NCBI RefSeq assembly: GCF_900143235.1 | Contig: NZ_FRDF01000010.1 | Coordinates: 1 to 64,000, forward strand | DNA from: Erythrobacter sanguineus | GTDB taxonomy: Bacteria > Pseudomonadota > Alphaproteobacteria > Sphingomonadales > Sphingomonadaceae | Direction of reading: 5' to 3' | DNA: 64,000 nucleotides | Shown: positions 5,657-58,722 of the stretch, piece after piece | Numbering within the stretch: position 1 is the first letter of the stretch | Layout of the letters: each line of letters starts with the position of its first letter | Notes under the pieces: model-generated | Told to the model about the DNA's origin: nothing | The model's database searches: none | The model's input: the letters and a program-made list of their open reading frames with translations, nothing else | Position numbers and translations under genes: made by a program

Positions 5657-7684
5657 TCAGAACCCGTAGCGCAGGCCGAGCCATATGGTGCGCGGCACGC
5701 CGAGATCGATCGATCCGCCCTGATTGCGGGTAATGATCGTCTCGTCCGTCAGGTTCTCCCCGCGCAGGACCAGCGACAATCTGCCCATCAGCGGCGCGGC
5801 AAGGAAGGCATCCACCGTGGTCGCGGGTGCCAGCCGGTCAGTTTCGCGGTCGTCCTCGAACTGGGCCGACACGTGGCGCAGCGTCCCGGCCACTTGCCAG
5901 CCCGCCGCCGGTCGCCAGCCGAAGGTCAGAGACGCGGAAAATTCGGGCACCTGCGGCGGGCGGTTGCCGTCCAGCGCGATCGCGGCGCCATCGCCCCGGA
6001 TTGCGGCATCGGTGAAGGTCAGCGAGCCATCGATGCTCACCTGCCCAAACCGCGCCGCAAGCGTGCCTTCGATCCCGCGCGCCTTGATCGCAGGCAGGTT
6101 CTGCCGCTGGCGCAGATTGGGGCTGATCGTGACATTGGCAATCGCGTCCTCGACCTTGTTGTCAAAGGCGGTGAGCGACAGCACGACCGCGTTCACCGGT
6201 TGCCAGTCCAGCCCCAGCTCGAACCCCTCAAGCCGCTCGTTGCGCAGATCGGCATTGGCCTGGGTCACGACCGGGAACACCACGAAGGGGCGGTACAGCT
6301 CGTTCAGGGTCGGCAGGCGCAGCCCGGTATAGGCCGCCGCGCGCAGATCGAGTCGCCGGGTCGCGTGGATCAGCGCACCCGCGCGCCAGCTTAGCGCCCA
6401 GTCGGACCGGTCGGCGGCGATGATCTCGCTTACCAGCGCGACGGCAGGCGTCACCGCGCGGTAGAAGCCATTGGTGATACTGGTGCGGTCAGCGCGCAGG
6501 CCGCCATTGATGAGGAGCGGGCCGATCTGCCAGTCATCCTCGATGAAAAGGCCGAGATTGCCGGTGGTGCCGCCCGCGCGCCGATTTTCAGTGATACGCC
6601 CGGTAAAGGCGCTGATCGCGTCTTCCTGCAGCTCCCCGTCGGCGCGGCGATAGTCGAGGCCGATGCGGATTTCATGCGCCTCGGCAACCGGCGGGCGCAG
6701 TTCGAACTTGCCGCCGATCCCGGTCGAAGGCGTGCTGCGCTGGTCGAGCACCGGGACAAACCGGGTCGAGCTGATCACGATGTTGGAAAAATCGCGCGCC
6801 TGGACATAGGCGAGCGCATCGAACTGCCATTTGCCCCGCCCGACGATCCTGATGCTGGCATCCTGTCCTTCGCTGGTCGAATCCGCACCGTGAAAGCGCA
6901 AGGTGCGCTCGTCGCGGAACAGGTTGACCCGCGCCTGCAATTCGATGTCGCTGGCCAGCGGCGCAACCCCGCGCAACCCCGCCTGCCAGCTGTCGAAACC
7001 GGCGCGGGCGGTGGCCGGAACGCGCTGGTCGGCGGGGGTGGTGAAAAACCCCTGCCCGCGGTCCCAGCGACCGCTGGCCACCGCAAAACCGCTGCCCAGA
7101 CGCTGGGTCACGACGCCGCTCGCCTCGGTTTCGGCGCGGTGGTTGATTGCCGCGCTGCCAAGCACTGGCCCGGTTGCGCCCGGATCGGCGCTTTCCAGTT
7201 CGATCGTGCCTGCCAGCGCCCCTGCGCCGAAAGGCCCCGACCCGCCGCCGCGCGTCACCCGGATCTGCCCCAGTGTCTCGGGCGCGATCGCACTCAATGG
7301 GATGTAGCCGAAGAACGGATCGGCAACTGGCACGCCGTCGAGCAGCACCAGCGCGCGGCTGGTCGCATTGCCGCCCAGCGCGCGCAGCGTCACGCCTTGC
7401 GCGCTCGGGTTGGCTGAACGGCTGTCCGAGCGGCGAAATTGCTGGAACCCTGCGACATTGCGCAACACATCCTCGATCCGGCCCGATGGGCTGGAAATGA
7501 TCGTCTCGCGCTCTATCGTGGTGGTGGCATAGATGCTGGTCGACAGCGCCGGGTCGAGCCCGCGCCCGGTGACGATGATTTCGGGCCGCTGATCATCCGC
7601 CGCATCTGCATCATCCTGCGCCGCCAGCGGCGCGCATGGCAGCAGGGCGGGGACACAGACAGACAGACGCAAAATCGATCTCAT
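5657..7684 (-). CDS. TonB-dependent outer-membrane receptor (BtuB/FecA-like plug)
   Basis: This 675-residue protein has a signal peptide ending near residue 22 (PLAAQ), a TonB-box-like EIIVTG at 35-40, a plug domain with SSPSGRIEDVLRNVAGFQQFRRSDSR and VLLDGVPVADPFFGY, and a beta-barrel ending in an aromatic residue (WLGLRYGF). It imports a scarce ligand across the outer membrane using TonB energy. The plug with repeated phase-changing glycines (VTRGGGSGPFGAGALAG) recalls vitamin- and metal-chelate receptors, but no riboswitch or transport operon next to it reveals the substrate. It is monocistronic as far as can be seen, ending head-on with the Sel1 cluster. Confidence 0.9.
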   Translation of the reverse strand: MRSILRLSVCVPALLPCAPLAAQDDADAADDQRPEIIVTGRGLDPALSTSIYATTTIERETIISSPSGRIEDVLRNVAGFQQFRRSDSRSANPSAQGVTLRALGGNATSRALVLLDGVPVADPFFGYIPLSAIAPETLGQIRVTRGGGSGPFGAGALAGTIELESADPGATGPVLGSAAINHRAETEASGVVTQRLGSGFAVASGRWDRGQGFFTTPADQRVPATARAGFDSWQAGLRGVAPLASDIELQARVNLFRDERTLRFHGADSTSEGQDASIRIVGRGKWQFDALAYVQARDFSNIVISSTRFVPVLDQRSTPSTGIGGKFELRPPVAEAHEIRIGLDYRRADGELQEDAISAFTGRITENRRAGGTTGNLGLFIEDDWQIGPLLINGGLRADRTSITNGFYRAVTPAVALVSEIIAADRSDWALSWRAGALIHATRRLDLRAAAYTGLRLPTLNELYRPFVVFPVVTQANADLRNERLEGFELGLDWQPVNAVVLSLTAFDNKVEDAIANVTISPNLRQRQNLPAIKARGIEGTLAARFGQVSIDGSLTFTDAAIRGDGAAIALDGNRPPQVPEFSASLTFGWRPAAGWQVAGTLRHVSAQFEDDRETDRLAPATTVDAFLAAPLMGRLSLVLRGENLTDETIITRNQGGSIDLGVPRTIWLGLRYGF

Positions 7685-27393: not shown

Positions 27394-28508
27394 AGCAGCA
27401 GGTGTCCTGAACGATCCCGCTTGGTCGCCAGATAGCGAGCGTTGTGCGGGTTTTCGGGCAGTTGATGCGGCACCCGTTCACTGACCGTGATCCCTGCGAC
27501 TTGTAATGCCGCGACCTTCGCCGGGTTATTGGTCAGCAGGCGGATGGTGGTCGCCCCCAGCAATTCCAGCATCCGCGCCGCCACCGGAAAATCGCGTGCC
27601 TCATCGGGCAGGCCGAGCCGTTGGTTGGCCTCGACCGTATCAAATCCCTGATCCTGCAAGCGGTAAGCGCGCAGCTTGTTGATCAGCCCGATCCCGCGCC
27701 CTTCCTGCCGCATATAGAGCAGCACGCCCCAGCCGCCCGAATCCCTGGCCTCATGGGCCATCGCGTGAAGCGCCGCGTCGAGTTGCGGGCCGCAATCGCA
27801 TTTGAGGCTGCCGAGGATGTCTCCGGTCAGGCATTCGGAATGGAGCCGCACCAAAGGCTGCCGGTCGCCCGACTGTTTGCCGATGATCAGCGCGACGTGC
27901 TCGCGCAGGTCGGCGGCTGATCGGAAGGCGACGATCTCGGCATCCTCGCTGGCGCTGACGGGCAGGCGTGCGCGGGTGACGATCCGCAGCGCGCCCGCGT
28001 GCGAATAGGCGGCGAGATCGGACACGGCGACCGGCACCGCCTCGCCCGCCCCCTCGGGATCGACCAGAAAGGCGGGCAGGATCCCGGCGATCCGCGCGAG
28101 TTCCAGCGCGGCGCTGGCCGCCGCCTCCCAATCGAGCGTCACCGCCTTGAACGGGCCTTTCAGGGGATTGCCCAGATCGAGCGCCGGATCGGCAATCGGC
28201 AGGGCATCACGCAGCGCGAAATCCTCCCCGCCCGCGATCAGCACCGGGGCGTGTGGCACCGCTGCATCGCGCTGATTGGCGAGTTTCAGCGTGGTCGCCC
28301 GCGCCGCTGAAATCAGCATGCGCCCGGCGCTTGCCCCGCTGGCAATGGCGGTTTCGACCGGCAGCAGGGTTGGCCCGCCGTCAAACGCCAGCGGCCAGCC
28401 GTGGCGCAGCGCGTCAACCGCCTGCGCGGCGCGTCGTTCAGGGGAAGGCGCCGCGTTCAGAGATCGAACTCCGTGATCAGCGGGACATGGTCGGACGGCT
28501 TCTCCCAC
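27390..28508 (-). CDS. ribA: GTP cyclohydrolase II with N-terminal extension (RibA)
   Basis: The C-terminal 200 residues are a GTP cyclohydrolase II: LVRLHSECLTGDILGSLKCDCGPQLDAA with the three zinc cysteines, MRQEGRGIGLINKLRAY with the catalytic Arg, and LLTNNPAKVAAL. The N-terminal 160 residues are a divergent domain seen in alphaproteobacterial homologues. It makes the first riboflavin intermediate from GTP. The start is unclear: no ATG/GTG/TTG lies at the expected N-terminus. GTG 28508 (GGAAG upstream) overlaps xthA by 52 bases, while CTG 28460 has GGAG at 8 bases. I list the GTG. Confidence 0.85.
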   Translation of the reverse strand: MGEAVRPCPADHGVRSLNAAPSPERRAAQAVDALRHGWPLAFDGGPTLLPVETAIASGASAGRMLISAARATTLKLANQRDAAVPHAPVLIAGGEDFALRDALPIADPALDLGNPLKGPFKAVTLDWEAAASAALELARIAGILPAFLVDPEGAGEAVPVAVSDLAAYSHAGALRIVTRARLPVSASEDAEIVAFRSAADLREHVALIIGKQSGDRQPLVRLHSECLTGDILGSLKCDCGPQLDAALHAMAHEARDSGGWGVLLYMRQEGRGIGLINKLRAYRLQDQGFDTVEANQRLGLPDEARDFPVAARMLELLGATTIRLLTNNPAKVAALQVAGITVSERVPHQLPENPHNARYLATKRDRSGHLLL

Positions 28509-29245
28509 GACCGCGCATCTTCCAGCACGCGGTGCGCGGCCGTCTGCCGCGCCAGATCGGGCGAGGCCCACATGTGATCGAGCCGCCGTCCCTTGTCGTT
28601 CTCCTGCCAGCCCGGATTGCGGTAGCTCCACCAGGAGTAATAGCGCGCCGGAGCGGGGATATGCTGGCGGCCCAGATCGACCCAGCCGTGGGCGTCCTGA
28701 AAGCGGCCAAGCGTCTCGACCTCGATCGGCGTGTGGCTGACGACCTTCAAGAGCTGCTTGTGGCTCCACACATCGCTTTCCAGCGGGGCGATATTGAAAT
28801 CGCCGACGATCAGCGTGGGGCGGTCGAGGCTGCCCGCCCACCTGGTCATCCGTTCGAGAAAATCGAGCTTTTGGCCGAACTTGGGGTTTACTTCACGGTC
28901 AGCCACATCGCCGCCTGCGGGGACATAGACGTTTTCGATCCAGACATCCTTGCCCAGCACCTCGACCCCGATGTGGCGCGCTTCGCCATTGGCCTGCCAG
29001 TCGTGGCGGGTGACTTCGCGGATGGGCAGGCGGCTGACGGTGGCGACGCCGTGATAGCCCTTCTGCCCGCTGACCGCCTGATGGGTGTAGCCGAGTGCTG
29101 CCAGCGCCTCGGCCGGGAACAGGTGGCTTTCGCACTTGATTTCCTGCAGGCACAGGATGTCGGGCGCGGCCTCGGTGAGCAGCTTTTCGATCAGGCCGAC
29201 GCGCAGGCGGGCCGAATTGATGTTCCAGGTGGCGACAGAGATCAT
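28457..29245 (-). CDS. xthA: exodeoxyribonuclease III
   Basis: This 262-residue member of the exonuclease-endonuclease-phosphatase family has WNINSAR with the first metal ligand, CLQEIKCES, the Tyr/Asp/Asn catalytic set in NVYVPAGG and VGDFNIAP, WWSYRNPGWQENDKGRRLDHMWAS and a final PSDHVPLI with the catalytic histidine. It cuts abasic sites and removes 3' blocks in base-excision repair. It is the first gene of the operon with ribA. Confidence 0.95.
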   Translation of the reverse strand: MISVATWNINSARLRVGLIEKLLTEAAPDILCLQEIKCESHLFPAEALAALGYTHQAVSGQKGYHGVATVSRLPIREVTRHDWQANGEARHIGVEVLGKDVWIENVYVPAGGDVADREVNPKFGQKLDFLERMTRWAGSLDRPTLIVGDFNIAPLESDVWSHKQLLKVVSHTPIEVETLGRFQDAHGWVDLGRQHIPAPARYYSWWSYRNPGWQENDKGRRLDHMWASPDLARQTAAHRVLEDARSWEKPSDHVPLITEFDL

Positions 29246-29372
29246 GGCCGGGGCTTAGGGGGGTATCCGCCCGTCCTCAAGTAGCGAAGCGATAGGACGC
29301 CAAGACTCCAGCTTTCACTTTATCGACGCATTGGGGCGCGATAGGGCGGGGCGACGCTTTCGGAGACTTCCC

Positions 29373-30788
29373 ATGACCCGCACCATCCTCGCAGCCCTGC
29401 TGCTCTCCAGTGCCGCCGTTCCGGCCTTCGCCGAGGACGCGCCTGTTGAACGCGCTGCCGCGCCGCGGGCGAAGAACATCATCCTGTTCATCGGCGATGG
29501 CATGGGCATTTCCACCATCACCGCCGCCCGCATCTACGAAGCGCAAAAGCGCGGGGAAACGGGCGAGGAAAACCAGCTCAGCTTTGAAAAGTTCGACAAC
29601 GTTGCGCTGGTCAAAACCTACAACACCAATGCGCAGGTGCCCGATAGCGCAGGCACGGCGACCGCGATGCATTCAGGCTTCAAGACCCGGATCGGCGTGC
29701 TGGGCATCGGGCCGGAGGCGGAAAAGGGTGTGTGCAAGGATGCGCTGGCCCACCCGCTGCCGCTGCTCGGCGAAGAGGTGAAACAGCGCGGGCTGGCATT
29801 GGGGATTGTCACCACCACCCGCCTGACCCACGCCACCCCGGCCAGCGTCATCACCCGCAGCGCCGACCGCGATTGGGAGGCCGACGCCGCGATCCCGGCC
29901 GACCAGCAGGGCCAAGGGTGCAAGGACATCGCGCTGCAATTTGCCGAAGCGGATTTCGACCTCGCGCTGGGCGGCGGAACAGCGGTGTTTTATGGCAAGG
30001 AGAAGGGCGGTCGGCGCAGCGATCCGGCGGCTGATCTGCCCGCCGTTTGGGCTGCGCGCAGCGGCGGGGTCGTGGTCAAGGATACCGCCGGGTTGCTGGC
30101 CGCGCCGATGGATAGGCCGGTGCTTGGGCTCTTCCACCCCAGCCACCTCACCTACATGGCCGATCGCAAGCCGGATTCGCCCGAGCCGACACTGACCGAC
30201 ATGACCGCGCAGGCGATTGTGCGGCTTCAGGCCGATCCCGATGGCTTCTACCTGATGGTCGAAGGCGGGCGGATCGATCATGCCCACCATGCCGGGCAGG
30301 CCGGCTATGCGCTGGAGGAAGCGGTCGAATTCGCCCGTGCGGTGCAATGGGCGGTTGACCATACCGACCCGGAAGACACGCTGATTCTTGTCACTGCCGA
30401 TCACAGCCACGTGTTCACGATTGCCGGCTACCCCCGGCGCGGGAATGATATTCTCGGGCTGGTGGTGCCGCCGATGGGGCGCGGCGAGGACGGGGGCGAT
30501 GGCAGCCCGGCCATGGCCAGCGACGGCAAGCCCTATACAACGCTTGGTTATGCCAACGGGCCGGGGGCGGTGCACTCGGGTGAAGATCACGGTGATGAAC
30601 ATGGCCGCCCGATCCCGCAAACCGGCATCGCCGTGCGTCAGCAGGCGACCGTGCCGTTGGGCAGCGAGACCCACGGCGGCGAGGATGTCGCGCTGTTCGC
30701 CACCGGCCCCGGCGCAAGCCGCGCGCGCGGGGTGATCGAGCAGAACGTGATCTACACGATCATCCGCAAAGCGCTGGGCTGGGAGTGA
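29373..30788 (+). CDS. phoA: alkaline phosphatase (PhoA family), exported
   Basis: A signal peptide (MTRTILAALLLSSAAVPAFA) precedes a PhoA-type enzyme of 471 residues. Visible are NIILFIGDGMG with the metal Asp at 42, the phosphoserine motif VPDSAGTATAM with S92, MVEGGRIDHAHHAGQ with zinc and magnesium ligands, LILVTADHSHVF and a distal HGGEDVALFATGP with the last zinc histidine. It hydrolyses phosphomonoesters in the periplasm. No clear Pho box was found directly upstream. A structured, terminator-ended region follows on the other strand. Confidence 0.95.
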   Translation: MTRTILAALLLSSAAVPAFAEDAPVERAAAPRAKNIILFIGDGMGISTITAARIYEAQKRGETGEENQLSFEKFDNVALVKTYNTNAQVPDSAGTATAMHSGFKTRIGVLGIGPEAEKGVCKDALAHPLPLLGEEVKQRGLALGIVTTTRLTHATPASVITRSADRDWEADAAIPADQQGQGCKDIALQFAEADFDLALGGGTAVFYGKEKGGRRSDPAADLPAVWAARSGGVVVKDTAGLLAAPMDRPVLGLFHPSHLTYMADRKPDSPEPTLTDMTAQAIVRLQADPDGFYLMVEGGRIDHAHHAGQAGYALEEAVEFARAVQWAVDHTDPEDTLILVTADHSHVFTIAGYPRRGNDILGLVVPPMGRGEDGGDGSPAMASDGKPYTTLGYANGPGAVHSGEDHGDEHGRPIPQTGIAVRQQATVPLGSETHGGEDVALFATGPGASRARGVIEQNVIYTIIRKALGWE

Positions 30789-30810
30789 CACGCCGAGCGT
30801 GAAGCCGCCA

Positions 30811-30857
30811 CAAAACAAAACCCCCGACCCGGGGGCGTTGGGTCGAGGGTTCCGTTT
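30811..30857. terminator. bidirectional intrinsic terminator between phoA and lolA
   Basis: CCCCCGACCCGGGGG (30821-30835) is a GC-rich hairpin with AAAACAAAA on its left, giving a U-rich tail on the minus strand. A longer fold pairs AACCCCCGACCC with GGGTCGAGGGTT (30840-30851) with one mismatch and is followed by CCGTTT on the plus strand, which would serve phoA. Confidence 0.65.
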
Positions 30858-30937
30858 GAGCGTTCGTCACGCTTGTACAAGGCCAGCCCTGAAGAAGGGT
30901 AGGCAACAGGGGGGAAACCACCCTTCGGCCTGCCTTG
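30811..30937 (-). ncRNA. candidate small RNA with intrinsic terminator
   Basis: The minus strand can fold into a long stem-loop: 30937-30927 pairs with 30888-30878 (11 bp, one or two bulges) and 30926-30920 pairs with 30900-30894 (7 bp perfect). It ends with CCCCCGGGTCGGGGG (30835-30821) followed by TTTTGTTTTG. No convincing reading frame covers it. The 5' end is set just downstream of a Fur-box-like stretch, so about 127 nt would be made. This is a prediction from structure alone. It could also be the structured 3' end of the lolA transcript. Confidence 0.5.
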
Positions 30938-30954
30938 TTGATAATGATTAGCTG
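30936..30954. promoter_or_regulatory. Fur-box-like sequence at the candidate small RNA promoter
   Basis: The stretch TTGTTGATAATGATTAGCT includes GATAATGAT, the 9-base half of the classical Fur box, in an AT-rich island inside GC-rich DNA. It is positioned across the expected -10 of the minus-strand transcript. One half-site matches well; the second is poor. Confidence 0.4.
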
Positions 30955-31026
30955 TTTGAGTCTTTCACGGACATGAACGGCAACGAAATTCTGTCGCTTT
31001 CCTACAACCACTCATGGCTCAGCCGT

Positions 31027-31698
31027 TCACCCCGGGCGGCGGGACGCACGGCGCGGATCGCGGAAGGTGAAGGTGCTGTCCGGCACGCTTACGCCATAGC
31101 GCTGATTCGTCAGCTGCACCCGCGTACGGTGGTTTTGCGCATCAAGTGCGACCCAGTGCGTGAGCTGCCAACCGCCGGGAGCCGAGGCGTTGCGTACGAA
31201 GATCAGATTGATCATCCCGAATTCGGGCTTCTTGGGATCGCGCACCTCGACACTGATGACATCGGCATTGCCGGTCGGGATCAGCTTGCCAAAGCGTTTG
31301 ACGTCGCGCTCGGGATCGAACAGCGCGCCCAATGGCGAGTTCTTGATCGGCCAGCGTTCAACCTGGCTTACCTCGTAATCGACAACATAGAGCGACTTGC
31401 CGTTGGAGATGACGAGGAAGTCCGAATCCTTGCCATAATCGAAGCGGATCTTGCCCGGGCGCTTCAAGGTCATCACCCCGGCCATGACATTGCCCTGCCG
31501 GTCGGTCTGGGTGAAATCGGCGCGCATGGTCGAAATCGTGCGCAGGGCGTTCACCACCGCATCGAGTTCGCTGGCAGATTGCGCCGCCAAGGGGGCGGGG
31601 GCAAGCGCCGCGGGCAAAGCGGGAGCCAGGCCCAGCGCCATTGTTCCGGCGCCGAGGCCGAGCAGCAAGGTACGGGCAGAGATGCGGGGTCTGATCAT
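31027..31698 (-). CDS. lolA: outer-membrane lipoprotein carrier LolA
   Basis: This 223-residue exported protein has a signal peptide (MIRPRISARTLLLGLGAGTMALG, cleavage near APLAAQ) and a LolA-type half-barrel: LRTISTMRADFTQTDRQGNVMAGVMTLKRPGKIRFDY, then LVISNGKSLYVVDYEVSQVERWPI. LolA receives lipoproteins from LolCDE and delivers them across the periplasm to the outer membrane. The start at ATG 31698 gives the signal peptide; longer frames upstream lack coding character. rpmG lies 79 bases upstream on the same strand. Confidence 0.88.
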   Translation of the reverse strand: MIRPRISARTLLLGLGAGTMALGLAPALPAALAPAPLAAQSASELDAVVNALRTISTMRADFTQTDRQGNVMAGVMTLKRPGKIRFDYGKDSDFLVISNGKSLYVVDYEVSQVERWPIKNSPLGALFDPERDVKRFGKLIPTGNADVISVEVRDPKKPEFGMINLIFVRNASAPGGWQLTHWVALDAQNHRTRVQLTNQRYGVSVPDSTFTFRDPRRASRRPG

Positions 31699-49713: not shown

Positions 49714-52044
49714 TCAAAAGCGTGCCGTGATCGTCACCCCGTACAACCGCGGCTCCGCCTGAATGAACGTAGGGATGCCAAACGCGCCGCCGGTGTTCCC
49801 GGCGTCCAGCAGGTAGTCTTCGTCAAAGGCGTTGCGGATGAAGCCGGCAATTTCGTAGCGGTTGTCCGCGAAGCTGAGGCCGGCGCGGCCGTTGACCAGC
49901 GTGACCGGGCCTTGCGCGATAAGGGGATTGTTGGGCACCTCAAAGAAGATCCGGCTCCGATGCGTCACGCTCGGGGTGGCAAAGAAACGCATGCCGTTGC
50001 CGAATTCGTGATTCACCGTGAACCCGCCGGCAGCCTGCCATTCGGGCTGAAGGCGGAAGCGCGCACCCGAAAAGGCGGGCGAGAAGGCTCCGTCTTCATC
50101 AATGCCGCCGTCGATAAAGCCGAAATTGCCGAACACCTGGAACCAGTCGGCCAGATCGACCAGCAGTTCACCTTCGACCCCAAGGTTCGACGCGGTGCCC
50201 GCGCTCTGGGTGATGAAAGCCCCGGTCGGGTTGCCTTGGCCATCGACCTCGGCAACGCTGACCTGAAAGCCGTCATAGACCTGATAATACACGCCGAGCG
50301 AGGCTGAAACCGGGCCGCTGGCGAGCTTGATCCCGCCTTCGTAGTTCCACACGGTTTCTTCCGGCACATCCAGCCGGTTGGCCACGACATTGCCGCCCGT
50401 GTCGCGCCGCGCGCCCAGCTGCAACACCGGCGAACGGCGGCCCTTGGACACGGTGGCGAACACGTTCACATCATCGCTGATCCGGTACAATGCGTTGAAA
50501 CGCGGCAGCACCGCCTGAAAATTCTCATCCGTGGTAAAAACACGCCCGCCTGTATCGACCCCGCCGGGGACCAGCGGTGCGCCGGTCAGCACGCTGTTCG
50601 GAATATCGGAGGAGAAGCTGGACTGGCGATATTCGTCAAGAATCCGGACGCCCGCAGTCAGTTCGAGCGAGTCTGCCGGGATCCAGGTCACGTCGGCAAA
50701 CACCGAATAAGCCTCGTTGCGGCCGCGATTTTCAAACAACACCGCGCTGTAGGGGAAGTTGGTCGCACCAAGCGCAGGAACGCTGCCGTCGGGCGCGACG
50801 CAGAGGTTGCGCGGGTTGCTGAACAGGCCGCCGAGACAGGTCAGGAACACCCCTTCTTCGGTCGCGAAGGGCACGTTTTGGCGGCCGTCTTCGATGAACA
50901 GGTTCCAGCCCGCGCTCGCCCGCAGGTTGCCGCCTTGATAGGCAAAGCGGCCTTCGTGGCTGATCTGCCAGCCATCGGCAATTTCGCTGAACTCAAGGAA
51001 GGGTGCTGCCGAACCGTCGGCATCGAATACCTCGCGGCTGTCGAATTTGCGATAACCGTTCACCGTGGTGAAGGTCCATTCGTCGGCAAACTGGTATTCG
51101 GCGGTGATGTTGAAGTCATAGACTTCGCGGTTGAGGCCGAGCTGGTCGTCGCCCAGCACCGCAGCGCCAGCAGGGTTACCGCCAAGATTGACGGGCTCGA
51201 AGGCGTTGGCTGCACCGCCGGGCGCGCCCGCAAACGCCGCGAAGGTGCCCGAGGTGAACGGCGTGCCGCCGTTGCGCTGCTGGTCATAGGTGGCGACCAG
51301 ATCCAGCGTGAAATCGGCGGTAGGGGTGTAGCGCAGCGATGCGCGCACGCCGAGCTGGTCCTGCGCGTAGAGATCCTCTTCCTGATTGGGATTGAGGTTT
51401 TCGACATAGCCGTCGCGGGTGCGCCATTCGAAGGCGATGCGGCCAGCAAGCACATCGGACCCGGCGTTCAGGTGTCCGCCCAGCAAGGTCTGGTTGAAAT
51501 TGCCGTAACCGCCGTTGAGCTCGCCCGAGAACCCCTCGCGCGGGCGGGCCGAGACGAGGCTGATCGCGCCAACCGCGCTGGCCGTGCCGAACAGCGTTGC
51601 CTGCGGGCCCTTGATCACTTCGACGCGCTCCAGATCATAGATCGCCTGATACGAGCCGCGCGAACGCGAGATGTCGACGCCATTGTAATAGAGCGTGACG
51701 CGCGGGCCCTGCTGCGCCGAGCCGCTGTCCGAGTTGATCCCGCGGATCACGATGCCAGGGTTGTTGGCGCTCTGTTCCTGGATGTTGAGGCCGGGGATGT
51801 AATTGGAAAGCTCGTCGAGATCGGTGACGCCAAGGTCGCGGATCCGTTCGCCCGACACGGCAGAGATGGTGATCGGCACGTCCAGCGCGCGTTGTTCGAT
51901 CTTCTGCGCGGTCACAATGATCTGGTTGCGGGCAGCATTGTCTTCGCTGTCCGCTTCGGAACCTTGCGCGAAGGCAGCCTGCGGCGCGGCAGCGAGCATG
52001 GTGGTGAGCGCGATCAGCGAGACGCGCCGGAGTTCTGTGGGCAT
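49714..52044 (-). CDS. TonB-dependent receptor (sphingomonad type)
   Basis: This 776-residue receptor has a signal peptide (ALTTMLAAAPQAAFAQ), a TonB-box-like QIIVTAQKIEQRALDVPITISAVSG, plug motifs NNPGIVIRGINSDSGSAQQ, TLYYNGVDISRSRGSY and RVEVIKGPQATLFGTASAVGAI, and a long barrel ending in YGVTITARF. This plug type is expanded in sphingomonads and takes up carbohydrates, aromatics or siderophores. The neighbours give no clue to substrate. GGGAAG precedes ATG 52044. A 14-bp inverted repeat about 190 bp upstream could be its operator. Confidence 0.92.
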   Translation of the reverse strand: MPTELRRVSLIALTTMLAAAPQAAFAQGSEADSEDNAARNQIIVTAQKIEQRALDVPITISAVSGERIRDLGVTDLDELSNYIPGLNIQEQSANNPGIVIRGINSDSGSAQQGPRVTLYYNGVDISRSRGSYQAIYDLERVEVIKGPQATLFGTASAVGAISLVSARPREGFSGELNGGYGNFNQTLLGGHLNAGSDVLAGRIAFEWRTRDGYVENLNPNQEEDLYAQDQLGVRASLRYTPTADFTLDLVATYDQQRNGGTPFTSGTFAAFAGAPGGAANAFEPVNLGGNPAGAAVLGDDQLGLNREVYDFNITAEYQFADEWTFTTVNGYRKFDSREVFDADGSAAPFLEFSEIADGWQISHEGRFAYQGGNLRASAGWNLFIEDGRQNVPFATEEGVFLTCLGGLFSNPRNLCVAPDGSVPALGATNFPYSAVLFENRGRNEAYSVFADVTWIPADSLELTAGVRILDEYRQSSFSSDIPNSVLTGAPLVPGGVDTGGRVFTTDENFQAVLPRFNALYRISDDVNVFATVSKGRRSPVLQLGARRDTGGNVVANRLDVPEETVWNYEGGIKLASGPVSASLGVYYQVYDGFQVSVAEVDGQGNPTGAFITQSAGTASNLGVEGELLVDLADWFQVFGNFGFIDGGIDEDGAFSPAFSGARFRLQPEWQAAGGFTVNHEFGNGMRFFATPSVTHRSRIFFEVPNNPLIAQGPVTLVNGRAGLSFADNRYEIAGFIRNAFDEDYLLDAGNTGGAFGIPTFIQAEPRLYGVTITARF

Positions 52045-52230
52045 GGTTTGGCTTCCCTGTTGGTGGAGAGAGGCCTTGCCCGTGGCAGGCGATGGTGACG
52101 CCAGCGCGACGAGAGCGTTAAGCCGGCGTGACAGCCGATTTACAATTTCGGGACGTTGCGATTTTGCATCTCTTGCTTGGGGCCACCTTGCGGTGACGCC
52201 AACCACCCGAGCCGGATTTCCGCCCTGTCA

Positions 52231-56282: not shown

Positions 56283-58634
56283 TCAAAATTCGAACAGCGC
56301 CTCGATCCCGATGTTCCGGCCGCGCTGCAGCGGCGACAAGGTGCCCGCGGTCGGGTTGGACGCAAACTGCTGGCGCACCCCGGTCGAGTTCGGGCCGCCG
56401 AATGGCAATTGCGTATCACCGCCCGCCTGCACTTCGTCGAACAGGTTGCGGCCATAGAGCGACAGCGACAGCCCTTCGAGCGGGGTCACCCAGGTGATGT
56501 TCGCTTCCAGGTTCGACATATCCTGGATGTAACCGAAATTGTCGTCGGTGAAGGCGAACTCATCGCGATACTGGTAGTTCACCCGCGTGAGGATTTCGCT
56601 GTTGCCGAGCAGCAGCTCGTGCACCAGCCCCATCCCCCAGGTCACTGCCGGCACACGTGGGATGCGCAGGTTCTCGTCTGCCCCGTCGATAGCCCCGTCG
56701 CCGGAAATGTCGAACAAGATGGTGTCATACTTGTCGTCGATCAGACCGAGGTTGGCAGTGATTATGAGCGAATCCGACACCCGCATGCGCGCTTCGCCTT
56801 CGAACCCGGTGATGGTCGCATCGGCGGTGTTGAGGATGTTCTGTACCACGCCTGCGCCCGGATCGGCGAGGTTCACTTCGCGCTGCATGTCCTGCACTTT
56901 GGTCACATAGGCCGCGACGTTGAGCGTGAAGGAGCCATCCGCGGTCTGGAACTTCCCGCCAATTTCGTAGGTGTCGACCTGCTCTTCGTCGAAGAACAGG
57001 TTTCCGGTCGCATCGACCGCGCGATTGAACACCGCAACGTTTGTGATACGAAAATTGTAGCCGCCCGAACGGAAACCGCGGCTCCAGTGGCCATAGACCT
57101 GACTGTCAGCGAATTCATACTGCAGGCCAAGCTTGGGCGAGAGGTTGCGGAACCGCACTTCATCGGTGAAGCCATTCGTCTCCGTCGCGGGATTGAAGGG
57201 CTGGGTGCCGGTTGGGCAGGTGCCCGCAAGAACCGAACAACGCGCGCGTGGGACGATATAGGTCACCGCTGCGTCCTTGGTTTCCTGATTCCAGCGCAGG
57301 CCAGCAATCACCGACAGCCCTTCGGCGAATTCATATTGCGCATTGGCAAACACGCCGATCACTTCGTGATCCTGCCGCCCACCACCGAAGAACACTGGTG
57401 GCTGAAGGTTTACAGGCAGATCGCGGCGCAGCTCGCGGCTTTCATCATAGGCAAGGCTCTGATCAAAGTAGAACCCGCCGAACGTCAGATCGAGGCTGTC
57501 AGTCGAGATTGCGTAGCGCAACTCGTTCGAGATCTGATCCTGCACCGTTTCCGTGTTCGAGTGGAACAGGAATGCCGGGGTCGAATCAATATCGCCGCGG
57601 GTGGTGGCGCTGTAGTCGCGATAGCCGAAGATGTTGGTCAGGGTGCCCGGGCCAATGTCCCATTCCGCGGTCAGTGAACCGGTCCAGATCTGGGTGTCGT
57701 AGAAGCCCGGCTCATCAATCGCCAAATCGAAGCTTTCGCGATCGAAGAATCCGCGGTTTTGGCCGGCTGGGCCATCGCCGTTGCTGTCGAAATAGTCGAG
57801 CTTGGCGCGGATCATCAGATCGCCAAAGCGCCCTTCGAGTGCGCCACGCAGGATCTTGGTGTCCGCCGCCCCTTGGTTCGACCCGTCGAACAGGTTGCGG
57901 AAATAGCCTTCGTCCTTGTTGTAATAGGCGCCCACCTTGAACAGCAGCACGTCTTCGACAATCGGGCCGGACATCACGCCGCTGACGGTGTAGTTCGCGC
58001 CGCCACGACCGCCATCGACCGGGCCATCGACCGCTGCACGGAATTTGCCGCGGAAATCTTCGGTCGGGTTGCCGGTGTTGAGCACCACAGCGCCACCGGT
58101 GACGTTGCGGCCGAACAACACGCCCTGCGGGCCGCGCAGGATTTCCACGCTGTCGAGATCGAACAGATCGAACACCACGCCGCCGTTGATGCCGAGATAC
58201 ACGCCATCGACGAAGACGCCGACAGTCGGGTCGATCGACGGGATCGAGGAGTTGATGCCAAGCCCGCGGATCGCGAAGTTGGCGGTGCCGCGACTGGTGC
58301 CGATCTGATCAAGGCTGACGTTCGGTGCCTGGAACGACAGGCCCTGAATATCGCGGATCTTGAAAGCTTCCAATGTGTCGGCATTGAACGCCGTCACGGC
58401 CAGTGCGACGTCCTGCACGTTTTCCGGGTCACGGGTCTTGGTGCCGGTGACAAGGATCTCGCTGATGGTGTCGAGTGCGCTTGTGCGCTGACCTTCGGTT
58501 TCACCCTGAGCGGTGCCTGCTTCGTCTTCGGCGATCTGGGCGTTGGCGGCAGAAGGGGCCAGCGCTGCGGTGCCGAGAAGCAGTGCGAATTTGCCAAGCC
58601 GGAGGGGGCTGGGCACGGGGTTTCTGGTGGTCAT
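56283..58634 (-). CDS. TonB-dependent receptor
   Basis: This 783-residue receptor has a signal peptide (LLLGTAALAPSAANAQ), a TonB-box-like EILVTGTKTRDPENVQDVALAVTAF, plug motifs FQAPNVSLDQIGTSRGTANFAIRGLGIN, VGVFVDGVYLGINGG and VEILRGPQGVLFGRNVTGGAV, and a barrel ending IGIEALFEF. It belongs to the large sphingomonad receptor group with unknown ligand; homologues take up aromatic or terpenoid compounds or sugars. AGGGAGAG precedes ATG 58634. It lies 129 bases downstream of glnD on the same strand, with an inverted repeat and tandem repeats between. Confidence 0.92.
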   Translation of the reverse strand: MTTRNPVPSPLRLGKFALLLGTAALAPSAANAQIAEDEAGTAQGETEGQRTSALDTISEILVTGTKTRDPENVQDVALAVTAFNADTLEAFKIRDIQGLSFQAPNVSLDQIGTSRGTANFAIRGLGINSSIPSIDPTVGVFVDGVYLGINGGVVFDLFDLDSVEILRGPQGVLFGRNVTGGAVVLNTGNPTEDFRGKFRAAVDGPVDGGRGGANYTVSGVMSGPIVEDVLLFKVGAYYNKDEGYFRNLFDGSNQGAADTKILRGALEGRFGDLMIRAKLDYFDSNGDGPAGQNRGFFDRESFDLAIDEPGFYDTQIWTGSLTAEWDIGPGTLTNIFGYRDYSATTRGDIDSTPAFLFHSNTETVQDQISNELRYAISTDSLDLTFGGFYFDQSLAYDESRELRRDLPVNLQPPVFFGGGRQDHEVIGVFANAQYEFAEGLSVIAGLRWNQETKDAAVTYIVPRARCSVLAGTCPTGTQPFNPATETNGFTDEVRFRNLSPKLGLQYEFADSQVYGHWSRGFRSGGYNFRITNVAVFNRAVDATGNLFFDEEQVDTYEIGGKFQTADGSFTLNVAAYVTKVQDMQREVNLADPGAGVVQNILNTADATITGFEGEARMRVSDSLIITANLGLIDDKYDTILFDISGDGAIDGADENLRIPRVPAVTWGMGLVHELLLGNSEILTRVNYQYRDEFAFTDDNFGYIQDMSNLEANITWVTPLEGLSLSLYGRNLFDEVQAGGDTQLPFGGPNSTGVRQQFASNPTAGTLSPLQRGRNIGIEALFEF

Positions 58635-58722
58635 TTTATAACTCTCCCTGAGTTGAGGCGCGGGGCAATAGCGAAGAGTCACGATATTGCAATCTGTTGC
58701 GGCGCCCCTTTCGTCAGAGTGC

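What the first reader, a model, noticed from the sequence alone, without database searches (positions are those of the whole stretch)
30811..30954. Candidate iron-linked small RNA between phoA and lolA
Seen: an AT-rich GATAATGAT stretch (30940-30948), directly followed on the minus strand by a long foldable element (30937-30927/30888-30878 and 30926-30920/30900-30894) and then a strong intrinsic terminator with a U-rich tail (30835-30811). Known: Fur boxes contain GATAATGAT halves, and Fur-repressed small RNAs are common regulators in proteobacteria. Inference: this is an independently transcribed RNA of about 127 nt. The coincidence of a regulatory box, stem and terminator without a plausible protein makes it the best non-coding candidate in the window. 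The weak points are a poor -35 and the possibility that it is lolA 3' UTR.
Basis: partly seen in the sequence, partly recalled or inferred. Interest (0 to 1): 0.75.

Follow-up and report, generated by a model that had tools for sequence, protein, structure and literature searches.

The report
Conserved lolA-linked small RNA in sphingomonads
Behind the lolA gene sits a small regulatory RNA gene that nearly every genome examined in this bacterial family carries; its location and build resemble RusT, a Caulobacter RNA that responds to iron starvation, so it may help these bacteria change their outer-membrane importers when iron is scarce.

Summary
On the minus strand at about 30938-30812 lies a ~127-nt structured RNA gene, single-copy in its genome: a long hairpin with a C-rich loop, a small hairpin, a terminator. 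It is not chance: blastn finds it in 36 of 37 own-genus genomes, a covariance model in 212 genomes of the family (one listed without), and three of four helices covary; the fourth is nearly invariant. It matches no Rfam 15 family; 6S and suhB lie elsewhere.

'lolA 3' UTR only' is unlikely: a promoter-like block between lolA and the RNA is conserved (loosely in 208 of 214 loci) and remains in the two loci where no lolA was detected.

The Fur box is not supported outside the own genus. Yet an iron link is plausible: the RNA sits between lolA and xth, where Caulobacter encodes RusT, an Hfq-bound, iron-starvation-induced, NtrYX-controlled sRNA repressing TonB receptors (here a phoA-like gene intervenes before xth). 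I propose a RusT-like sRNA whose loop CCCCUGUUGCC pairs with mRNA leaders. Candidate sites exist (a TonB-receptor gene cluster, sdhC), but enrichment is weak and one site is not conserved. Similar C-rich RNAs follow lolA in some other alphaproteobacterial families.

The parts
30812..30938 (-). small RNA gene (about 127 nt; 5' end near 30938 inferred, 3' end in the T-rich tail)
   Evidence: fold z -5.35; covariance model hit 30810-30949 in own genome, 125.5 bits, though this locus is one of the model's own sequences; MFE of the 127-mer -65.8 kcal/mol
30878..30937 (-). long hairpin: helix P1 (30937-30927 with 30888-30878) enclosing P2/P3 and a C-rich apical loop
   Evidence: P1 and P2/P3: 16 of 17 pairs with double substitutions; 79.5% and 75.6% of cells paired on an alignment not fitted to structure
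30902..30917 (-). apical loop UUUCCCCCCUGUUGCC (part of it closes P3), presumed target-pairing seed
   Evidence: CCCCTGTT in 98 of 98 loci fetched by blastn
30859..30873 (-). small hairpin AGCGUGACGAACGCU
   Evidence: GCGTGACGAACGC in 97 of 98 loci fetched by blastn; 4 of its 5 pairs never vary, so they say nothing on structure
30812..30857 (-). intrinsic terminator with C-rich loop (GCCCCC) and T-rich tail
   Evidence: 99.5% of cells paired, 9 of 13 pairs with double substitutions; terminator scan
   Evidence: T and A at 0.98-0.99 in the alignment of 214 loci
30962..30977 (-). TTCAT-N6-G(A/C)(A/C)AG block at about -39 to -24, presumed regulator or sigma contact
   Evidence: TTCA and the A of G..A at 1.00 in the alignment of 214 loci; TTCAT-N6-GMMAG-N11-TA exactly in 161 of 214, a loose form in 208 of 214
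30992..31008 (-). GTTGTA-N5-GCGACA block, imperfect inverted repeat upstream of the promoter
   Evidence: alignment of 98 loci, partly conserved; weaker
31027..31698 (-). lolA, upstream neighbour on the same strand
   Evidence: Pfam PF03548, E 4.2e-21; lolA hit directly upstream in 206 of 208 loci
28457..29245 (-). xthA (exonuclease III family), downstream neighbour; here a phoA-like gene lies between
   Evidence: Pfam PF03372; xth downstream on the same strand in 157 of 207 loci, within 400 nt in 132

Best explanation
It is the gene of a trans-acting, probably Hfq-dependent small RNA, near-universal in Sphingomonadaceae and the syntenic, functional counterpart of Caulobacter RusT. SHOWN by sequence: a conserved RNA element, single-copy in the own genome, with covarying helices, an invariant loop and a terminator, and a conserved promoter-like block between lolA and the RNA that remains where no lolA was detected. 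INFERRED: it is transcribed from its own promoter under a dedicated regulator (NtrX is the lead by analogy, not Fur); the small hairpin plus U-tail bind Hfq; the loop CCCCUGUUGCC pairs with (GG)CAACAGGG(G) near ribosome-binding sites and blocks translation of TonB-dependent receptor mRNAs and perhaps of iron enzymes such as succinate dehydrogenase, to remodel the envelope when iron is short.
For: Conservation and covariation. lolA upstream in 206 of 208 loci, xth within 400 nt downstream in 132 of 207. Promoter block: strict form in 161 of 214 loci, loose form in 208 of 214; L049 has the strict form and L148 the form with one changed base (GCAAT), and in both no lolA was detected upstream. RusT: 118 nt, between lolA and xth, four stem-loops, Hfq contacts in the stem-loop before the terminator, seed in a hairpin loop, TonB-receptor targets (PMC11005374). 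C-rich RNAs behind lolA in other families. Candidate sites in own genome: GGCAACAGGGG, 11 perfect bases, before a racemase gene followed on the same strand by two SnoaL-like genes and a TonB receptor; CAACAGGG before a receptor in the window; AACAGGG before another receptor and before sdhC (Pfam identities of the cluster, the second receptor and sdhC). AACAGGG within 24 nt of a possible start: 2 of 12 receptors against 9 of 1083 other genes, p 0.006; 2 of 21 annotated plasmid receptors of other Sphingomonadales. The loop complement with up to 3 mismatches has 34 places in the genome, the gene itself included, against 13 for the reversed pattern.
Against: No transcript data. The RusT sequence could not be obtained, so the link rests on position and architecture; RusT has four stem-loops, this RNA three. 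The receptor test came after I had seen one site; two wider motif sets gave p 0.027 and 0.12, 3 of 140 permuted heptamers (this one included) have as many receptor hits, and 35 of 140 have as many hits in all. Over the wider leader, 7-mers are in 2 of 12 receptors and 76 of 1083 others, 8-mers in 0 of 12 and 15 of 1083. Relatives of the window's receptor on plasmids lack the site, 0 of 6. Predicted duplex energies do not discriminate: -26.9 for the racemase leader, but -26.4, -23.6 and -23.1 occur among the leaders of 44 called window genes. Another 11-base match precedes an EF-hand protein of no known iron role. Hfq binding and NtrX control were not testable. Outside the order the model gives nothing clear: 40 of 289 class genomes reach E 0.01, but apart from four family members the best is E 5.7e-7.
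Confidence: 0.55

Rival explanations
1. It is a conserved 3' UTR of lolA: lolA transcription reads through and the RNA element stabilises or terminates the lolA mRNA, or is processed from it (a 3' UTR-derived sRNA) without its own promoter.
For: lolA lies directly upstream on the same strand in 206 of 208 loci, and the scan finds no terminator-like site between them, so read-through into this terminator is likely.
Against: A block TTCAT-N6-G..AG-N11-TA sits just before the RNA (strict in 161, loose in 208 of 214 loci), with poorly conserved spacers; it remains, in L148 with one change, in the two loci where no lolA was detected upstream. Neither an invariant loop nor a covarying long hairpin is needed for a plain terminator.
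Confidence: 0.15
2. A Fur-repressed sRNA of the RyhB/PrrF/NrrF kind, with the Fur box over the -10 region.
For: The own locus matches 14 of 19 positions of the recalled Fur consensus, joint best of the window; TAATCATTCTC recurs in close relatives and genus loci average 11.0 against 9.7 shuffled. A possible sdhC site is RyhB-like.
Against: Only one half-site; in 182 loci outside the genus the match equals shuffles (9.25 against 9.16) and 1 of 182 reaches 13. The RusT authors found no Fur site either.
Confidence: 0.1
3. A constitutive or growth-related C-rich-loop sRNA of another regulon (such as general stress, like GsrN) that pairs with G-rich leaders but has nothing to do with iron.
For: C-rich loops pairing with G-rich mRNAs are the GsrN mode (PMC5869019, passages); the promoter block matches no regulator that I could name.
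Against: gsrN homologues are typically near the general-stress genes (not in C. crescentus itself) and Erythrobacter litoralis has no apparent gsrN-like gene; the lolA-xth position matches RusT.
Confidence: 0.2

Closest known systems
RusT (CCNA_R0199), Caulobacter crescentus, mBio 2024 (PMC11005374; passages and four sections read)
   Same: Position between lolA and xth on the lolA strand; length 118 against ~127 nt; hairpin with conserved loop, a hairpin just before the terminator, terminator with U-tail; no convincing Fur box
GsrN, Caulobacter (PMC5869019; passages read)
   Same: Exposed C-rich loop able to pair with G-rich leaders
   Different: General-stress regulon (sigma-T/EcfG); reported as not apparent in Erythrobacter litoralis
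suhB sRNA, Rfam RF00519 / SuhB of Sphingopyxis granuli (61 nt; PMC6563040, passages read)
   Same: A characterised sRNA of sphingomonads
   Different: RF00519 matches elsewhere in this genome (contig C5, 43.5 bits); different size and sequence
BjrC80, Rfam RF02354 (Bradyrhizobiaceae)
   Same: C-rich hairpin loops and terminator; a lolA-downstream RNA of another family (L305) aligns end to end, E 0.17
   Different: Below cut-off (25.6 against 80 bits); the window RNA itself gives no such match
RyhB/PrrF/NrrF class of Fur-repressed sRNAs (named in PMC11005374; details recalled)
   Same: Would share iron-sparing targets if sdhC pairing is real
   Different: No conserved Fur box; different sequence and structure

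Membership tests
RusT family | located between lolA and xth, same strand | tested here: met
   lolA upstream 206 of 208; xth within 400 nt downstream 132 of 207, anywhere downstream in the locus 157 of 207; in the window a phoA-like gene is inserted
RusT family | sequence or structure homology with Caulobacter RusT | not testable with these tools
RusT family | conserved hairpin loop used as seed | tested here: inconclusive
   Invariant C-rich loop present; pairing with targets only predicted, with mixed controls
RusT family | Hfq binding | not testable with these tools
   a hairpin before a U-tailed terminator is present, binding not measured
RusT family | NtrX-controlled promoter, induction by iron starvation | not testable with these tools
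   a conserved promoter block exists; its regulator is unknown
Fur-repressed sRNA | conserved Fur box in the promoter | tested here: not met
   182 loci outside the genus equal shuffles; one half-site and a mild excess in 33 genus loci
6S RNA | match to RF00013 at this place | tested here: not met
   6S lies on contig C15; no match here
suhB (RF00519) | match to the family model at this place | tested here: not met
   match on contig C5 only
any Rfam 15 family | covariance-model match | tested here: not met
   none at gathering score; with E up to 5 only a 10-bit opposite-strand match at E 3.8
GsrN | EcfG promoter and general-stress locus | tested here: inconclusive
   locus is lolA-xth, but gsrN is off the stress locus in C. 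crescentus too; the EcfG motif (recalled) is not among the conserved blocks, judged by eye only
intrinsically terminated structured RNA | helices supported by compensatory changes | tested here: met
   26 of 35 pairs with double changes; 0 of 500 shuffles reach any of five measures; slid versions far lower

The most novel reading that the evidence does not exclude
The lolA-xth interval is an ancient alphaproteobacterial sRNA locus: a class-wide family of lolA-linked RNAs with C-rich loops, of which RusT and this Sphingomonadaceae RNA are two branches, links envelope lipoprotein transport and iron status to TonB-receptor and iron-enzyme mRNAs, by a regulator that is not Fur.
Probability: 0.4. 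Interest if true: 0.8.

Novelty: new member of a known kind. Interest (0 to 1): 0.6.

Why it matters
An RNA found in 212 genomes of a large environmental family, single-copy in the own genome, with an invariant loop, looks like a core regulator; it matches no Rfam 15 family and the listings of my library searches show no description of it. If it is the counterpart of RusT, sphingomonads gain a candidate master sRNA for outer-membrane remodelling, and the question whether alphaproteobacteria share a RyhB-like iron response without Fur becomes directly testable.

Tried and rejected
Fur box: rejected outside the genus (simple two-base block shuffles). 6S, suhB, BjrC80 and other Rfam families: no match here; for lolA-downstream RNAs of other families only sub-cut-off matches, among them L439 to SorX at E 0.3. 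RF02354 in 289 class genomes: three weak hits, none over the cut-off, none with lolA or a clear xth within 1.5 kb. Coding ORF: rejected. Promoter pattern TTCAT-N6-GMMAG-N11-TANNNT in 13 genomes: 3 matches, all at this RNA's own promoter by coordinates; the own locus fails the final T, so 0 in the own genome, and regulon members with a looser motif could have been missed. Literature: searches gave RusT but, in the listings shown, no sphingomonad description; most subscription journals are not held, and a transcription-start data set for Novosphingobium aromaticivorans exists (PMC7471390, seen in a listing only).

Targets: loop complement GGCAACAGGGGGGAAA with up to 3 mismatches, 34 places against 13 reversed; contexts of the 30 with loci were listed, without a clear winner. 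Leader 7- and 8-mers: no clear receptor enrichment. TCCCCY-hairpin count behind lolA: 15 of 91 stretches (two genomes are in twice, so 14 of 89 genomes) against a block-shuffle mean of 6.7 and maximum 12 of 50 shuffles: a modest excess. The first alignment dropped 31 loci by orientation and was replaced.

Full report
Observation. On the minus strand CAAGGCAGGCC (30937-30927) pairs with GGCTGGCCTTG (30888-30878) but for one mismatch, GAAGGGT with ACCCTTC inside it, and a terminator follows. The 130-nt fold is -66.1 kcal/mol, z -5.35, 0 of 200 shuffles as stable.

Conservation. With the 237-bp interval as query, blastn finds one place in the own genome besides short chance pieces, 36 of 37 genus genomes including the own one, and 159 of 298 family genomes, 53 of 96 genera. 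A covariance model (R1, 76 sequences that I picked by hand from 167 non-redundant ones) matches 217 of 296 genomes of the order at E 0.001, of which 212 are of the same family (weakest family match in the list E 3.6e-10). The listing shows one family genome without a match (G065); 59 unmatched genomes are not listed but, by the sort order, should lie outside the family. The five matches in other families of the order are weaker (best E 7.5e-11, not followed up). In the class 40 of 289 genomes reach E 0.01, but only four family members score 70 bits or more and the best other genome is at E 5.7e-7, which looks like background. Some of these are the same genomes as unnamed ones.

Anatomy. In 98 loci fetched by blastn, none dropped, CCCCTGTT is present in 98, GCGTGACGAACGC in 97 and GCCCCCGG in 95. 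Loci from the pattern scan have the first two by construction, so they do not count for invariance. On the MAFFT alignment, which was not fitted to structure, the four helices give 88.5% standard pairs, 26 of 35 pairs with changes on both sides and 239 such cells; 0 of 500 shuffles reach any of the five measures, and sliding partners by 1-3 columns drops pairing to 30-58%. The helix columns were taken from the fold of one member, which favours the unslid version somewhat. The terminator and the long hairpin covary; the small hairpin hardly varies, as if its sequence, not only its pairing, matters. It is not in Rfam 15; 6S and suhB are elsewhere in the genome. It is not protein-coding.

Promoter and neighbours. 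The lolA stop lies about 90 nt before the RNA; lolA was found upstream in 206 of 208 loci. Between them the alignment of 214 loci shows TTCAT-N6-G(A/C)(A/C)AG-N11-TA, with TTCA and TA practically invariant and free spacers; as a pattern, the strict form is in 161 of 214 loci and a loose form in 208. The TA is placed right for a -10 element, while the usual -35 positions are not conserved, which suggests an activator or an unusual sigma contact. The two loci where no lolA was detected, L049 and L148, keep the block, L148 with one changed base. This argues for an independent gene. In 132 of 207 loci xth starts within 400 nt downstream, in 157 it is found downstream on the same strand; in the window a phoA-like gene on the other strand separates them.

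The Fur question. The best 19-mer match to a Fur consensus (recalled) averages 11.0 against 9.7 shuffled in 33 genus loci, with a single half-site, and 9.25 against 9.16 in 182 others. A family-wide Fur box is therefore rejected; a species-level one cannot be excluded.

RusT. A paper on Caulobacter (PMC11005374; passages, four sections) describes RusT: 118 nt, transcribed between lolA and xth, Hfq-bound at the stem-loop before the terminator, induced by chelator or zinc, repressed by NtrX, no Fur site found, repressing TonB receptors and OmpW, with a conserved hairpin loop shown by point mutation to matter for some targets. Position, size, hairpin order and terminator agree with the RNA here; the number of stem-loops differs and the sequence could not be compared. 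I therefore claim that it works like RusT with moderate confidence, and orthology only as likely.

Other families. lolA lies near xth in 21 of 85 class loci examined. Behind lolA, RNAs with a hairpin loop of the TCCCCTCCC type appear in L305, L317, L400, L412 and L420, with similar ones in L323 and L372/L439. Overall 15 of 91 lolA-downstream stretches (14 of 89 genomes) carry a TCCCCY hairpin loop against 6.7 per block shuffle (maximum 12 of 50) and 3 on the other strand; some of the 15 look unrelated. This is the basis of the class-wide reading, which stays unproven.

Targets. The loop CCCCUGUUGCC has an 11-base perfect complement just before a racemase gene (Asp_Glu_race), followed on the same strand by two SnoaL-like genes and a TonB receptor, and 8- and 7-base matches before two more receptors and before sdhC (Sdh_cyt). 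An EF-hand protein has an 11-base match as well, GCAACAGGGGG. In 1.26 Mb with 1095 home-called genes, AACAGGG within 24 nt of a possible start is found for 2 of 12 receptors and 9 of 1083 others (p 0.006), but I had seen one receptor site before the test, two wider motif sets gave p 0.027 and 0.12, and 3 of 140 permuted heptamers, this one included, have as many receptor hits. Leader 8-mers are in 0 of 12 receptors and 15 of 1083 others. Duplex energies do not single the candidates out. In 24 receptors fetched from plasmids of other Sphingomonadales, 3 without annotated start set aside, 2 of 21 carry AACAGGG there; the 6 relatives of the window receptor carry none, one of them with a doubtful annotated start. 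The target list is a set of leads.

Verdict.

Noticed in passing
L305, L317, L323, L372, L400, L412, L420, L439 (intervals behind lolA): Other alphaproteobacterial families have RNAs with C-rich hairpin loops (TCCCCTCCC type) right behind lolA; none reaches an Rfam cut-off.
   Followed up: partly
L305:650-791; L439:969-1031: Sub-cut-off resemblance of lolA-downstream RNAs to Rfam BjrC80 (L305, E 0.17) and to SorX and anti-hemB (L439, E 0.3 and 0.08).
   Followed up: partly
window 5657-7684, 49714-52206, 56283-58682: Three TonB-dependent receptor genes lie in the window (by eye and phmmer); the second has CAACAGGGAA just before its likely ATG at 52044.
   Followed up: partly
window 30992-31008: A second, partly conserved upstream block, GTTGTA-N5-GCGACA, an imperfect inverted repeat, of unknown reader.
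   Followed up: no
window 29331-30788: A phoA-like gene on the opposite strand is inserted between the RNA and xth; a phoA-like gene is found within 1.2 kb downstream in 58 of 203 loci.
   Followed up: no
L534, L535, L536: Plasmid relatives of the second window receptor sit beside an alkaline phosphatase D family gene.
   Followed up: no
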